DNA of 64,000 nt, taken from positions 310,001 through 374,000 of the forward strand of contig NZ_CP012601.1 in assembly GCF_001278755.1 (NCBI RefSeq), written 5' to 3'. This document shows positions 46,749 through 51,298 of the stretch, in pieces (within the stretch, counting starts at the first letter, position 1; each line of letters opens with the position of its first letter). Position numbers and translations under genes: made by a program. Source of the DNA: Bacillus sp. FJAT-22090. Its GTDB lineage: Bacteria > Bacillota > Bacilli > Bacillales_A > Planococcaceae. The notes below the pieces were generated by a model. That model did not search any database. It worked only from the letters and a program-made list of their open reading frames with translations, and was not told the origin of the DNA.

Positions 46749-46772
46749 AGCTGCCGGCAAGGCAGCTTTTTT
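46749..46772 (+). terminator. Terminator at array junction 1
   Basis: AGCTGCC / GGCAGCT stem (46749-46755, 46761-46767) and TTTTTT. Confidence 0.88.
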
Positions 46773-46802
46773 CTTGTTAACGCAGCATGTTAGGCTAACA
46801 AG
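46773..46802. repeat. Array palindrome, copy 1
   Basis: CTTGTTA at one end and TAACAAG at the other form a perfect 7-bp inverted repeat around AACGCAGCATGTTAGGC. It directly follows a terminator, as several later copies do. Confidence 0.7.
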
Positions 46803-46841
46803 ATGAATGGTAAAGTTAGAGAATCAAAAGTGGCTTAAGTA

Positions 46842-46973
46842 ATGTTAGGTGAAAATTTTTATGAACAGTTAGTTGAACATATGAATGCTGGTGTGTTAAT
46901 TTGCCTATCCTTGTATTATTGCATTTATTATTTTATATTTAAGATGAAAAAATTAGTAATAATCGATAAATAA
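46842..46973 (+). CDS. Possible 43-aa single-pass membrane peptide
   Basis: Open frame from ATG 46842 to TAA 46973. Residues about 14-33 form a hydrophobic helix (NAGVLICLSLYYCIYYFIF), followed by KMKK, the positive-inside pattern of a small membrane protein. No good ribosome site precedes ATG 46842 or the in-frame ATG at 46881, so this could be chance. It lies between array palindromes 1 and 2. Confidence 0.3.
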   Translation: MLGENFYEQLVEHMNAGVLICLSLYYCIYYFIFKMKKLVIIDK

Positions 46974-46988
46974 AACTCACTTTTTTTA

Positions 46989-47016
46989 TTCAACTAAAGG
47001 TGCAGTTTAGTCTTAA
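46989..47016. repeat. Array palindrome, copy 2
   Basis: TTCAACTAA ... TTTAGTCTTAA around GGTGCAG. It lies 36 bases before the DUF4256 start. A half copy (CAGTTAGTTGAAC) is seen earlier at about 46865-46877. Confidence 0.65.
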
Positions 47017-47052
47017 ACCATTATGAGTAAAAACAATAAGGGGGAAACTAAT

Positions 47053-47619
47053 ATGACAAAGAGAAATAAGGAGTTGTCACAAGAACAACGTGAGGAACTA
47101 CTCAGAACTTTGAAGGCACGTTTTGAGAAAAACATGAACCGCCATGAAGGTCTTGAATGGGCTAAAGTACAAGCTAAGCTCGAAGCTAATACTGAAAAAC
47201 TGTGGTCGCTCAATGAAATGGAAGGAACAGGTGGTGAACCGGATGTTGTTGGCCATGATAAAGAGACGGGCGAATACATTTTTTATGATTGTTCAGCGGA
47301 AAGTCCTAAAGGTCGCAGAAGTGTTTGTTACGACCGAGAAGCACTAGAGTCAAGGAAAAAACATAAACCAGAAAATAGCGCTATTGATATGGCAACTGCC
47401 ATGGGCATTGAACTTTTAACGGAAGAACAATACCGGGAGCTGCAGAAACTAGAAAATTTCGATATGAAAACGTCGAGCTGGGTGGAAACACCTGCTAATA
47501 TTAGACAACTCGGCGGGGCCGTCTTTGGTGATCGTCGCTACGACACTGTCTTTGTGTACCACAATGGAGCAGACTCCTACTACGCTGCAAGGGGATTCCG
47601 TGGCTCGCTTAGGGTTTAA
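47053..47619 (+). CDS. DUF4256 domain protein
   Basis: 188 aa from ATG 47053, which has AAGGGGGAAAC upstream; an in-frame ATG at 47023 has no site. Conserved DUF4256 blocks are LKARFEKNMNRHEGLEWAKV, GGEPDVVGHDKETGEYIF, DCSAESPKGRRSVCYDREAL and VFVYHNGADSYYAARGFRG. The family is widespread as single scattered genes in bacteria and has no known function. GC content is higher than in the neighbours, which suggests horizontal origin. Confidence 0.85.
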   Translation: MTKRNKELSQEQREELLRTLKARFEKNMNRHEGLEWAKVQAKLEANTEKLWSLNEMEGTGGEPDVVGHDKETGEYIFYDCSAESPKGRRSVCYDREALESRKKHKPENSAIDMATAMGIELLTEEQYRELQKLENFDMKTSSWVETPANIRQLGGAVFGDRRYDTVFVYHNGADSYYAARGFRGSLRV

Positions 47620-47718
47620 ATTTTGCATAGACGGCTAAATTTATATTTGAGAACGGATGACTTGTAGAAGGCTTTAATTTCAGTCTTCAACTATCAGAGG
47701 CATTAGATATAGATCAAT

Positions 47719-47743
47719 GGGCTGCATAGGCAGCTCTTTTTTT
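47719..47743 (+). terminator. Terminator at array junction 3
   Basis: GGGCTGC / GGCAGCTC stem with CTTTTTTT. It closes the DUF4256 unit. Confidence 0.85.
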
Positions 47744-47772
47744 ATTCGAAAAAAGGAGCAGTTTAGTTGAAT
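47744..47772. repeat. Array palindrome, copy 3
   Basis: ATTCGA at one end, then AAGGAGCAG, then TTTAGTTGAAT. The right arm is intact and the left arm is decayed. Confidence 0.65.
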
Positions 47773-47839
47773 AATATATTTGTTTTTTCATGTTAATATG
47801 AATCTATAACATAAATGTGCACAAAAAGGAGTTGTATTA

Positions 47840-49161: not shown

Positions 49162-49689
49162 GTGATTAAATTAGTCAAAGAAGTTGATAATGAATTGGTG
49201 TATTGGGAAGTTTGGAAAGATGATAAAACATTAACAGTCCACTATGGTGTTGTTGGAGATACTGGTGAAACTGAAGAAGTAAAATTAAAGTTATTTGAAA
49301 AAGCGGAAAAGGTAATGGGAAAATTAGCTGAAGAGAAGTTAAATGATGGTTATGAAACCGTTGATGAAGAGGAGTTAATCGAGCTTGTTGTCCAATATTC
49401 ATATGAAGAAAATCATATGGTAGAAGCACTTGAAAAAAGGCACATGGTCGAAGATTTAATGAATGAGTGTTTAGGATGGACTGGAAATGGTTCGTGTGAT
49501 GGTGGAGACATTGGTAGTGGTAGTGCGAACGTCTTCAACTACGTTATTGACGTCGAAAAAGCTTTAAAAACTACAATCGAGGAATTATCTAATAAAAATT
49601 TATTAGATAATGTGAAAGTAGCTTTTTTAGATGAAGATGAAGAATATGTTTCTCTTTATCCAGAAGGTGCTGAATTTGATATCATTTAA
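49162..49689 (+). CDS. WGR-like domain protein
   Basis: 175 aa from GTG 49162 behind AGGAGG. Residues 1-70 (ELVYWEVWKDDKTLTVHYG, then GETEEVKLKLFEKAEKVMGK) resemble a WGR domain, a fold found in some nucleic-acid and toxin-immunity proteins. The remaining half is acidic (LDEDEEYVSLYPEG) and unassigned. The palindrome behind it (49692-49717) is perfect. It may act as an immunity-type or sensor protein, but this is not shown by sequence. Confidence 0.65.
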   Translation: MIKLVKEVDNELVYWEVWKDDKTLTVHYGVVGDTGETEEVKLKLFEKAEKVMGKLAEEKLNDGYETVDEEELIELVVQYSYEENHMVEALEKRHMVEDLMNECLGWTGNGSCDGGDIGSGSANVFNYVIDVEKALKTTIEELSNKNLLDNVKVAFLDEDEEYVSLYPEGAEFDII

Positions 49690-49691
49690 TA

Positions 49692-49717
49692 TTCAACTAA
49701 CGAGTGTGTTAGTTGAA
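49692..49717. repeat. Array palindrome, copy 6 (perfect)
   Basis: TTCAACTAAC (49692-49701) and GTTAGTTGAA (49708-49717) are an exact 10-bp inverted repeat around GAGTGT, three bases behind the WGR-like gene. Confidence 0.8.
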
Positions 49718-49721
49718 CAAG

Positions 49722-49746
49722 AGGCTGTCTTTAAGGATAGCTTTTT
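49722..49746 (+). terminator. Terminator at array junction 6
   Basis: GGCTGTC / GGATAGC stem followed by TTTTTCT; preceded by AACAAGA as at junction 5. Confidence 0.75.
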
Positions 49747-49750
49747 CTAC

Positions 49751-49774
49751 TTGAAGTAAAGTAGATGAGTCGAA
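49751..49774. repeat. Array palindrome, copy 7 (decayed)
   Basis: TTGAAGTAAAGTAG then ATGAGTCGAA; recognisable as the motif only by position behind a terminator. Confidence 0.45.
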
Positions 49775-49835
49775 AGTATATTAATATCAAAAAGCGCCTC
49801 TTAATGATCTGACCCAATAAAGTTAGACAAATAGT

Positions 49836-50645
49836 TTAAGCAGCTTCTAAGACCTGAGTTCGGTATTCTACTGGACTTAGGTCTTTTAATTTTGCCTTCA
49901 TTCGTTTATGGTTGTAATACTCGATATATTCATGTAGTTCACGTTCAAAATGTTCCATACTCTCAAACTCTTGTAGATAAAGAAGCTCGGACTTTAATAA
50001 GCCAAAGAAGTTCTCAATAACTGCGTTATCTAAACAATTACCCTTACGGGACATACTTTGCTTTATATTGTGTTTCTCTAATGTCTTCTGATACTTCTTC
50101 ATTTGATAATGCCAGCCTTGATCGGAATGTAGAATGACTTCATTTCCTGGATTTAAATTTCCGATTGCCTCGTCCAACATATCACCCACAAGTTGATAAA
50201 CTGGACGGTTCATTATCTTGTAAGCAATGATTTCGCCATTACATAAATCTAAAACAGGTGATAAATAACGTTTCTCACCAAATAAATGAAACTCCGTTAC
50301 GTCCGTTACCCATTTTTCATTTATCTTTCCTGCATGGAAATCACGGTTTAGTAAATTCGGTGCGATTTTACCGACTTTTCCACGATAAGAACGATACTTC
50401 TTTATCCTTACTTCGCATTTTAAACCCATTTCGTTCATCAATCGGTTGATCGTCTTTGGATCATGAAAAATGTTTATTTTCTTTAATTCTTTGGCGATGC
50501 GACGATAGCCATAACGTCCTTTATGTTCATGATAAATGGCTTCAATCGCTTCTTTTTCCTTCGCGTATTTATCTTCACGCTGTAATCGTTTTTCCCAGTA
50601 ATAATAAGTACTACGTGGAATGTCTGCGACTTTAACTAATTCCAC
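49836..50645 (-). CDS. IS3-family transposase OrfB (DDE integrase core)
   Basis: 269 aa when counted from GTG 50645, but the frame is open upstream and it is normally made as an OrfAB fusion by -1 frameshift. The helical start ([12 protein letters not shown]) is followed by the rve catalytic domain with the three acidic residues in [24 protein letters not shown] and [13 protein letters not shown]. All are intact, so it could be active. Confidence 0.92.
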
Positions 50646-50674
50646 GACATCAAATTCAGCCTTTAGTTCAAAAA

Positions 50675-51196
50675 TTACTTGCGCTTTGATTTTGTTTGTA
50701 ATTTTTCCTTTTCCTGAACTAAAGCGTTCAACTTTTTTAAGTAGGCATTCTCCATACGCAAACGTTCATTTTCAGCTCGTAGAGCTTCCATAGATCCTTC
50801 AACTGGAGATGTTTTTTTGTCATTCGATTTGGTTTCCTTTTTCATGGATGGACGCCCCTTTTTCTTTGGTTTTAGGGCATCGATTCCACCAATTTCAAAC
50901 GCTCTTCGCCACTTTCTAATCAGACCAGCTGACGAAATATTAAAAATTGCGGCCGTCTCAAGAGAGGATGTACCCATTTCGTTCATATAACTCAGTACAT
51001 CTAGTTTAAACTGTTGCGTATAAGTTGTATAGGGTTGACAGAATGCCTCTGCACCTTGATGTTCATAAAGTCTTACCCATCCTCGCATCACAACTTTACT
51101 GACTTTTAAGTCCCTTCCTATTTCCTGATAACTTTCATTGCCTCCTAAATAACGCAATACCATTTTGATTTTTTCTTCGGCTGTAAATCTAGCCAT
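50675..51196 (-). CDS. IS3-family transposase OrfA (HTH)
   Basis: 173 aa from ATG 51196, with GGGG upstream. Two helix-turn-helix units are visible ([19 protein letters not shown] and [20 protein letters not shown]), then a leucine-zipper-like helix ([20 protein letters not shown]) used for multimerisation. It binds the terminal repeats. The sequence before its stop contains the slip site for the fusion protein. Confidence 0.9.
50732..50738 (-). promoter_or_regulatory. Programmed -1 frameshift site (A AAA AAG)
   Basis: In orfA the codons TTA-AAA-AAG hold the heptamer A-AAA-AAG in the 0 frame. The -1 frame is open from there through to OrfB. This is the standard IS3 slippery site. Confidence 0.8.
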
Positions 51197-51298
51197 AAAA
51201 AACACCCCGCAAATGTTAGTTTAGTGTCTAACATTTACGGGGCAGTTCATAAAAAGGTGCTTTTTTTTGTACTTTAACCTGCATTGTCTGATAAAAAG

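What the first reader, a model, noticed from the sequence alone, without database searches (positions are those of the whole stretch)
46749..51292. Palindrome-separated array of small single genes resembling a cassette array without integrase
Seen: eight or so copies of one unit in 4.5 kb, each a short terminator hairpin (GCTGCC- or GGCTGTC-type) followed by an imperfect palindrome with arms like TTGAACTAAC and GTTTAGTTGAA around a 6-base centre (46773, 46989, 47744, 48298, 48356, 49083, 49692, 49751; a decayed one at about 51269). Between them lie unrelated small genes (43-aa peptide?, DUF4256, GNAT, anchored protein, gene fragment, WGR-like). The block AACAAGAGGCTGTCTT recurs at two junctions, so the units themselves are copies and not just similar hairpins. 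Known: integron cassettes combine one gene and one recombination site, but the arms here do not fit the GTTRRRY/RYYYAAC ends of attC. Inference: this could be a different kind of cassette or repeat-driven gene-capture array, moved by a recombinase elsewhere, or by homologous recombination between units.
Basis: partly seen in the sequence, partly recalled or inferred. Interest (0 to 1): 0.8.

Follow-up and report, generated by a model that had tools for sequence, protein, structure and literature searches.

The report
Integron-like gene arrays in Gram-positive bacteria
The small genes in this window look like an outlying piece of a large gene-capture system in Gram-positive bacteria, which works like an integron but appears to use a different enzyme and two alternating kinds of exchange site.

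Summary
The palindromes are real and belong to a genome-wide system. The genome (Psychrobacillus, by inference) has 216 copies of the main site (control 0) in one-directional arrays, the largest about 165 kb. Two site types alternate: P1 (TTCAACTAAC-GGGTGC-TTTAGTTGAA), usually behind a gene, and P2 (TTGAACTAAC-GNNGCAG-KTTAGTTGAA) before the next, with a terminator-like segment between. Two 281-aa tyrosine recombinases and a truncated third sit in or at the arrays, transcribed against the cassettes, next to an attI-like site. They score 92 bits or less against the IntI model (cut-off 265), lack the IntI1 insertion, and form their own clade.

Stretches 94-100% identical occur beside unrelated neighbours in other arrays, species and genera; identity switches inside P2. 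It also switches inside P1: 28 of 34 near-identical gene ends carry a different terminator. Of 256 distinct breakpoints of shared DNA, 122 lie at P1 or P2. In two related Paenisporosarcina, the 16 cassettes nearest the integrase are private and the next 4 shared. The window's genes are absent from all 12 relatives where the locus could be resolved.

It works like an integron but fails IntI and attC membership. Activity is inferred, not shown. Eight literature searches listed no description (no preprints held).

The parts
46750..46772 (+). terminator hairpin GCTGCCGGCAAGGCAGC + T run
   Evidence: read in the sequence
46775..46797 (+). decayed P2-like site (TTAACGCAGCATGTTAG), left end of the array
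   Evidence: read by eye against the P2 consensus; weak
46842..46973 (+). ORF of 43 aa, possible first cassette, no Pfam family
46989..47015 (+). P2 site TTCAACTAAAGGTGCAGTTTAGTCTTA
   Evidence: family D2
47023..47619 (+). cassette gene, DUF4256 (PF14066, E 9e-96)
47720..47744 (+). terminator hairpin GGCTGCATAGGCAGCTC + T run
   Evidence: read in the sequence
47745..47771 (+). P2 site TTCGAAAAAAGGAGCAGTTTAGTTGAA
   Evidence: family D2
47840..48286 (+). cassette gene, GNAT acetyltransferase (PF00583, E 3e-16)
48298..48323 (+). P1 site TTAAACTAACGATTGCTTTAGTTGTA
   Evidence: family D10
48324..48355 (+). terminator-like segment between P1 and P2
   Evidence: same layout as the 304 P1-P2 segments clustered
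48356..48382 (+). P2 site, 1 mismatch to the consensus
   Evidence: (0.00 expected)
48399..48893 (+). cassette gene, 164 aa, hydrophobic N-terminus; weak DKNYY match below its cut-off
49049..49082 (+). terminator-like segment (AACAAGAGGCTGTCTT...), P1 lost
   Evidence: family D6
49083..49109 (+). P2 site TTGAACTAATTATGCAGGTAAGTTGAA
   Evidence: families D1, D2
49162..49689 (+). cassette gene, WGR domain (PF05406, E 1e-5)
49692..49717 (+). P1 site TTCAACTAACGAGTGTGTTAGTTGAA
   Evidence: family D10
49716..49750 (+). terminator-like segment AACAAGAGGCTGTCTTTAAGGATAGC
   Evidence: family D6
49751..49777 (+). decayed P2 site, right end of the array
   Evidence: by eye; weak
49836..51205 (-). IS3-type transposase by its domains (HTH ORF 50675-51205, rve ORF 49836-50645) at the array end
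46655..51272 (.). block present here and without counterpart in the seven relatives aligned in detail, between DUF3006 and rpsD
   Evidence: genes also absent in 12 of 12 resolvable relatives

Best explanation
This is an outlying piece, without its own integrase, of an integron-like gene-capture system. A dedicated Xer-like tyrosine recombinase (281 aa) recombines short sites made of two inverted 10-bp arms around a 6-7 bp centre. Incoming circles are inserted at an attI-type P2 site in front of the integrase gene, so arrays grow from the integrase outwards, in one orientation. There are two site classes with different centres, P1 (GGGTGC) and P2 (GNNGCAG). P2 x P2 exchange moves gene plus terminator. 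P1 x P1 exchange swaps the terminator behind a gene. The integrase gene with its attI itself sits in a P1-to-P2 slot and is found at several places in one array. Shown: the sites, their orientation, the linkage to the integrase, the attI-like stretch, the switch points at P1 and P2, cassette turnover and relocation. Inferred: that this integrase does it, that P1 pairs with P1 and P2 with P2, that circles are the intermediate, and that the sites are recognised as double strands.
For: 216 P2 sites in the genome, 0 in the control. In 180 kb of the main array P1 is 104 forward/0 reverse and P2 119/1. Of 126 site-to-site intervals with an ORF of 40 aa or more, the longest ORF is on the array strand in 113. 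Integrases at 959, 1002 (truncated) and 1283 kb lie in or at the arrays, opposite to the cassettes. An attI-like stretch, by eye, stands before the integrase in 13 loci; a P2 match lies at +69 to +76 in 5 of 13. Integrase at 80% identity or more over the matched part is in 25 of 151 family genomes, all 25 with exact P2 sites; 27 of the other 126 have them (hand count; p 2e-14). Contexts at least 94% identical on one side only switch inside P2: 24 downstream-sharing and 7 upstream-sharing pairs. 28 of 34 near-identical gene ends have a different terminator, switching inside P1. 122 of 256 distinct breakpoints lie within 20 nt of P1 or P2; each has 61, 14.8-fold (P1) and 11.5-fold (P2) over coverage. 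G011 versus G072: 17 of 50 cassettes shared; the 16 nearest the integrase private, the next 4 shared; one cassette relocated from P2 to P2. Similarity of integrase modules beyond the stop ends after 58-71 nt, in P1, in 47 of 53 comparisons with a hit. A sister integrase (65%) has changed sites.
Against: No activity was measured. 3 of 21 genomes with 10 or more P2 sites (G072, G078, G120) have no integrase at E 1e-80 (at most 16 candidates per genome are scored). 15 genomes have only a relative at 61-66% identity and 0-4 exact P2 sites; nine of these loci were fetched and show no P1 or P2 on the array side of the gene. The window array is far from any integrase. In the main array 48 of 137 P2 have no recognised P1 before them, and 19 of 108 P1 no P2 within 250 bp. 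Only 191 of 304 P1-P2 segments fold at -5 kcal/mol or better, so not all are proven terminators. Two switch points between G011 and G072 (A1/B1, A2/B2) keep the same right half of P2 although the next cassette differs, which a crossover at the centre does not predict. In the seven upstream-sharing pairs P2 position 12 agrees in only 4, so the exact exchange point is not fixed. Pairs are not independent: one cassette can enter several.
Confidence: 0.8

Rival explanations
1. A true but divergent integron: the integrase acts on a folded single strand, P1-segment-P2 being one attC site (R'' L'' - loop - L' R'), with unusual use of both ends.
For: P1 and P2 arms are complementary and the order and position of exchange match R''-L''-L'-R'. 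301 of 311 units keep a mismatch in the inner stem, reminiscent of extrahelical bases, and at one inner pair (P1 23 with P2 2) pairing exceeds the shuffles, z 5.1 and 2.4. Layout and polarity are those of an integron.
Against: No excess pairing between the outer arms of P1 and P2 in circular or integrated form, 311 units, z between -2.0 and 1.9. Sites are conserved in sequence. The integrase lacks the IntI1 insertion and is far below the IntI model cut-off. The inner-stem pattern follows a few unit families and is not independent; the neighbouring pair (26 with -1) shows less pairing than shuffles, z -5.9 and -4.2.
Confidence: 0.2
2. The arrays are moved by the host's XerC/XerD on dif-like sites, as dif modules in Acinetobacter; the linked integrase is a passenger.
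For: Site size (10-6/7-10) resembles dif (recalled); the host has other Xer-type recombinases.
Against: The linked integrase is tied to the sites across 151 genomes, its own upstream region carries the P2 core, and a sister integrase has sister sites.
Confidence: 0.05
3. Ordinary homologous recombination between short dispersed repeats shuffles the genes; there is no site-specific enzyme.
For: P1-P2 segments fall into few families (six clusters hold 259 of 304), which offer roughly 75-130 bp of imperfect homology.
Against: Breaks peak at the 26-27 bp sites and switch at P2 also where the upstream segments are of different families (by eye). Strict orientation and the link to one integrase need explaining.
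Confidence: 0.08
4. The palindromes are only terminators or repeat elements (bcr- or MITE-like) with no part in gene movement.
For: Terminator hairpins stand in the units; the repeats are intergenic.
Against: Orientation, clustering, integrase link and breakpoint enrichment.
Confidence: 0.02

Closest known systems
Sedentary chromosomal integrons (IntI, attI, attC cassettes)
   Same: tyrosine recombinase beside an attI-type site, transcribed against the cassettes; long one-way arrays of unrelated small genes with similar recombination sites; private cassettes nearest the integrase in the one pair compared; arrays without integrase elsewhere
   Different: integrase outside the IntI model and without the IntI1 insertion; sites conserved in sequence, no compensatory changes in the outer arms; breakpoints at two places per unit (P1 and P2), equally often; terminators exchange separately; integrase in a P1-P2 slot, several copies in one array
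dif (pdif) modules of Acinetobacter plasmids moved by XerC/XerD (search listing and recall only)
   Same: short sites of two arms and a 6-7 bp centre; genes bounded by sites
   Different: dedicated integrase and attI; hundreds of chromosomal sites in one orientation per array; two site classes
XerA/XerC/XerD recombinases
   Same: nearest families by profile score (222, 202 and 206 bits)
   Different: far below the XerC and XerD cut-offs; own clade (100/99, long branches); multi-copy, patchy, linked to arrays
CALIN (attC clusters lacking an integrase)
   Same: the window array, and the sites of G072, G078 and G120, have no detected integrase
   Different: sites do not fit attC ends

Membership tests
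Integron | integrase of the IntI family | tested here: not met
   TIGR02249 91.9, 88.3 and 90.6 bits against a cut-off of 265; PRK15417 56.5 or less against 435
Integron | IntI-specific insertion (I2 helix) in the catalytic domain | tested here: not met
   absent in the alignment with IntI1 of R388; the structure model was too poor to add to this
Integron | attI site next to the integrase | tested here: met
   conserved stretch before the start codon, by eye in 13 loci; P2 match 69-76 nt from the start in 5 of 13
Integron | one-directional array of mostly single-gene cassettes, integrase transcribed against them | tested here: met
Integron | attC ends RYYYAAC and GTTRRRY | tested here: not met
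   ends are AACTAAC and KTTAGTT
Integron | attC conserved in folded structure, not in sequence | tested here: not met
   sequence conserved; outer-arm pairing at the shuffled level in 311 units; inner stem inconclusive; attC covariance models were not available
Integron | one exchange point per site (R') | tested here: not met
   breaks at P1 and P2 equally often, 61 each of 256
Integron | cassettes gained, lost or moved as whole units at the site | tested here: met
   two junctions (A1/B1, A2/B2) are less clean
Integron | recombination of a folded bottom strand | not testable with these tools
   needs a strand-transfer assay
Integron | SOS (LexA) control of the integrase | tested here: inconclusive
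   no CGAAC-N4-GTTCG in the stretches beside two integrases
XerCD/dif modules | site of two inverted arms around a 6-8 bp centre | tested here: met
   P1 10-6-10, P2 10-7-10
XerCD/dif modules | moved by the housekeeping XerC and XerD | not tested
   linkage points to the dedicated integrase
XerCD/dif modules | sites in alternating orientation (recalled) | tested here: not met
   119 to 1 in one orientation
XerC / XerD housekeeping recombinase | score above the curated model cut-off | tested here: not met
   XerC 202 of 335, XerD 206 of 330 bits; the XerA model gives 222, 220 and 206 (truncated copy) around its cut-off of 220

The most novel reading that the evidence does not exclude
A second, independently evolved integron-like system of Gram-positive bacteria: a Xer-derived integrase without the IntI domain works on two alternating classes of double-stranded site, so that gene bodies, their terminators and the integrase gene itself are three interchangeable kinds of module. 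It would be either a parallel invention of the integron or a living form of the intermediate that the origin of integrons calls for.
Probability: 0.6. Interest if true: 0.95.

Novelty: new variant of a known kind. Interest (0 to 1): 0.9.

Why it matters
Integrons are held to be very rare in Firmicutes: a survey of complete genomes reports one complete integron there, in Limnochorda pilosa, and a few CALINs (PMC9024848, passages). Here one chromosome carries over two hundred sites, the order of size given for sedentary chromosomal integrons (PMC8618304, passages), with an integrase far below the IntI model cut-off, sequences shared across genera and a copy on a plasmid. A cassette platform run by an enzyme without the IntI insertion bears on an open question: how attC sites and the helix that reads them could arise together, called a chicken-egg paradox in PMC4792948 (passages). 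The two-site logic can be tested in laboratory strains, and the arrays are a large reservoir of small accessory genes.

Tried and rejected
Compensatory change between P1 and P2 outer arms, in circular and integrated pairing: none, so I do not claim attC-type folding. Rfam, gathering threshold, on four array stretches: one unrelated sRNA. A GGCGCTTTCC hairpin near the 61-66% integrases as a sister site: rejected, one or two copies per stretch. The exact sister P2 site, taken from one plasmid, in 250 genomes of the class: 0. P2 across the phylum: 2 of 398, G000 itself and one genome of the same class; only 14 of the 398 are of the class outside the family. Loose P2 patterns (5 mismatches) match both strands because the site is nearly palindromic, 97 on the reverse strand, so strand was judged with the tighter pattern. 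LexA boxes: none in two stretches. Promoter-like matches in a 1.2-kb stretch around one integrase start: 7 against 4.6 in shuffles, so no claim. Structure prediction of the integrase from four sequences: mean pLDDT 52, unusable, so no fold search. Phages at E 1e-50: no match. PADLOC: two families, matched by 3 and 1 of 96 cassette proteins, so known defence does not dominate.
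Full report
WHAT IS IN THE WINDOW. Between tyrS (44650-45966) with a DUF3006 gene (46393-46647) and rpsD (51370-51972) lie five small ORFs on the + strand, separated by palindromes and terminators. 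The palindromes are of two types. P2 (27 bp, consensus TTGAACTAAC-GNNGCAG-KTTAGTTGAA) stands at 46989, 47745, 48356 and 49083, with decayed copies, by eye, at about 46775 and 49751. P1 (26 bp, TTCAACTAAC-GGGTGC-TTTAGTTGAA) stands at 48298 and 49692. A terminator-like segment lies between a P1 and the next P2. An IS3-type transposase (by its domains) stands at the right end.

THE SYSTEM IN THE GENOME. The window is G000:C1:310001-374000 of a 4.21-Mb chromosome. P2 with up to 3 mismatches occurs 216 times (165 forward, 51 reverse), with 0 for the reversed pattern. In the stretch 830-1010 kb, P1 is found 104 times forward and 0 reverse, P2 119 forward and 1 reverse. The alternation is not complete: with looser patterns 48 of 137 P2 have no P1 before them and 19 of 108 P1 have no P2 within 250 bp. 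In 12 fetched stretches, of 126 intervals between neighbouring P2 sites (15 more were outside 200-3000 bp and 5 had no ORF of 40 aa), the longest ORF is on the array strand in 113 and on the other in 13; median spacing is 753 bp and the median ORF 162 aa. Of 96 cassette ORFs scanned (of 115 listed), 13 match GNAT Acetyltransf_1, 3 NUDIX and 3 are transposase-like (rve); 42 of the 66 families found are matched by one ORF. Contigs of three other genomes of the genus have the lengths of named Psychrobacillus records, so I take the genus to be Psychrobacillus; this is inference.

THE INTEGRASE. Among 19 tyrosine-recombinase matches, three related ones, 94-95% identical to each other over the matched part, lie in or at the arrays: 281 aa at 959 and 1283 kb, and a 5'-truncated one (237 aa) at 1002 kb. 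A fragment lies at 854 kb and a possible one at 1112 kb. They are transcribed against the cassettes. NCBIfam scores of the 1283-kb copy: XerA 222 (cut-off 220), XerD 206, XerC 202, IntI model 92 (cut-off 265). The catalytic R, K, H-R, H and Y are present by eye and the IntI1 insertion is missing. In the tree this clade, with its relatives, has support 100/99 apart from the host Xer proteins and IntI1; branches are long and the bootstrap had not settled, so its nearest neighbour is unsure.

attI AND THE INTEGRASE MODULE. Before the class I integrase in 13 loci stands, by eye, a conserved stretch (in the commonest form ...TTATTGCCAACTTAATAGAATTATAGACATAGGGTGTATTTTTACTAACG) that runs into the right half of a P2, often degenerate; a P2 match lies 69-76 nt from the start in 5 of 13. 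Behind the integrase stop stands a terminator and then a P1, found by pattern in 8 of 13. Of 53 comparisons with a hit (of 78 possible pairs), similarity ends 58-71 nt beyond the stop, in P1, in 47. The integrase with attI thus occupies a P1-to-P2 slot, and several copies can sit in one array.

LINK BETWEEN ENZYME AND SITES. Of 151 family genomes, 52 have exact P2 sites (9 of 19 genera; control 0) and 40 have the integrase at E 1e-80 (at most 16 candidates scored per genome). Counted by hand, 25 have it at 80% identity or more over the matched part, some only as fragments, and all 25 have P2; 27 of the other 126 do (Fisher p 2e-14). Against the link stand three of 21 site-rich genomes without it (G072, G078, G120), and 15 genomes with a 61-66% relative and 0-4 sites; nine of those loci were fetched and show no array. 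A plasmid of Sporosarcina psychrophila carries a 94% copy with P1 and P2 sites. A plasmid recorded as Arthrobacter citreus NEB 577 carries a 65% relative among small genes whose sites have changed with it (P1' centre TGATGC, P2' AACAAAATGGCAGWTTAGTT, and a similar site before the integrase, by eye); that P2' was in 0 of 250 genomes of the class. In 398 genomes of the phylum, 14 of them of the same class but another family, only G000 and one other have it.

CASSETTES MOVE, AND WHERE THEY BREAK. Among 699 site contexts (300 bp on each side), pairs sharing at least 94% of one side (120 bp or more) and nothing detectable on the other change inside P2. In 24 downstream-sharing pairs position 2 agrees in 5, position 11 in 8, position 24 in 20; in 7 upstream-sharing pairs position 2 agrees in 6, position 11 in 7, position 12 in 4, position 24 in 2. 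Of these 31 pairs, 8 join this genome with others (Viridibacillus, Solibacillus, Paenisporosarcina, another Psychrobacillus) and 12 lie within it. P1 behaves alike: of 34 pairs of gene ends at least 90% identical over 150 bp, 28 have a different terminator; position 2 agrees in 23 of 28 (chance 0.33), positions 20 and 23 in 12 and 6 (chance 0.44 and 0.31) (at a looser threshold 37 of 43). The 304 P1-P2 segments fall into 31 clusters, six of which hold 259; the largest, 80 segments, stands behind 77 different gene ends; 191 of the 304 fold at -5 kcal/mol or better. As a less directed check, the ends of shared DNA (93% or more, 150 bp or more) were mapped over 1.75 Mb of array-rich sequence after dropping four same-genome duplicates: 61 of 256 distinct ends lie within 20 nt of P1 (14.8-fold) and 61 within 20 nt of P2 (11.5-fold) (before de-duplication 75 and 79 of 316). 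Pairs are not independent of each other.

TWO RELATED GENOMES. G011 and G072 (one genus; G011 has a contig of the length of Paenisporosarcina sp. HGH0030) are 97.8-99.8% identical in the long alignments around three arrays. Of 50 G011 cassettes (150-4000 bp), 17 have a full-length G072 partner, at 97-100%. Beyond the P2 sites on the cassette side of one G011 integrase, the first 16 have none and the next 4 all have one. One cassette lies in another position in G072, from P2 to P2, without matching neighbours. The G072 stretches fetched hold no such integrase. Two array ends (A1/B1, A2/B2) switch just to the right of P2 rather than in its centre.

THE WINDOW'S OWN LOCUS. In 18 relatives of the genus, tyrS, DUF3006 and rpsD could be placed together in 12; in 6 they could not. 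None of the 12 shows any of the five cassette genes (tblastn, E 1e-8) or a P1; two show one loose P2 match (4 mismatches allowed) inside DUF3006, which I take as chance. In the seven aligned in detail, similarity stops at window 46621-46654 and resumes at 51273-51369. The block is most simply an insertion in this lineage.

MECHANISM AND MEMBERSHIP. The layout, attI, polarity and cassette turnover are those of an integron, and P1-loop-P2 can be read as R''-L''-L'-R'. But IntI membership and the attC hallmarks that could be tested were not met. Classical attC sites recombine the bottom strand about a thousand times better than the top (PMC8946536, passages), whereas here breakpoints at both ends are equally common. 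The simpler reading is a Xer-like enzyme on double-stranded, dif-like sites of two classes. Almost all units keep a mismatch in the inner stem (301 of 311), and one inner pair matches more often than shuffles, which keeps the single-strand reading alive.

NOVELTY. Eight searches aimed at such a system and two on neighbours of open-licence PubMed Central papers listed no description of it; several lists were cut at 15-20 of 31-54 papers, and I saw titles and starts of abstracts, with passages of five papers. Preprints and most subscription journals are not held. I rate it a new variant of a known kind, with a real chance that it is an independent invention.

Noticed in passing
L243 9140-15283 (plasmid CP053689.1): A sister array with a 65% integrase and diverged sites in a record labelled Arthrobacter citreus; the other relatives are Bacillales, so the label may be wrong.
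   Followed up: partly
L220-L228 around position 10000: Relatives of the integrase at 61-66% identity stand alone, without arrays; several share an upstream sequence ...TTCTATTATGTTCAA.GAAAG.TTTTTTCATAC (by eye).
   Followed up: partly
all 311 P1-P2 units: Only 10 units pair perfectly in the inner stem; a mismatch at P1 position 20 or 23 is the commonest, like the extrahelical bases of attC.
   Followed up: partly
P1-P2 units of the long family: Units with about 105 bp from P1 to P2 often end in CCATTGTGAAATGTTACAC just before P2; it may carry a promoter or regulator site for the next gene.
   Followed up: no
L240 5371-7176 and 31081-32883; L243 16412-17740: Group II introns lie in the same plasmids as the arrays, recalling introns that target attC sites (recalled).
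   Followed up: no
L155 1680-1896, minus strand: Rfam match to the Bacillus sRNA ncr1575 inside the main array stretch.
   Followed up: no
L222, about 12452-12898: Repeats with the 13-mer TTTCTATGAGCGC, counted 14 times over both strands, near a solitary integrase relative.
   Followed up: no
L274, L275 (IMG/VR contigs): Two viral contigs each hold one P1 and one P2 match but no integrase in the stretch held.
   Followed up: partly
window 49836-51205: IS3-type element at the decayed end of the array.
   Followed up: no
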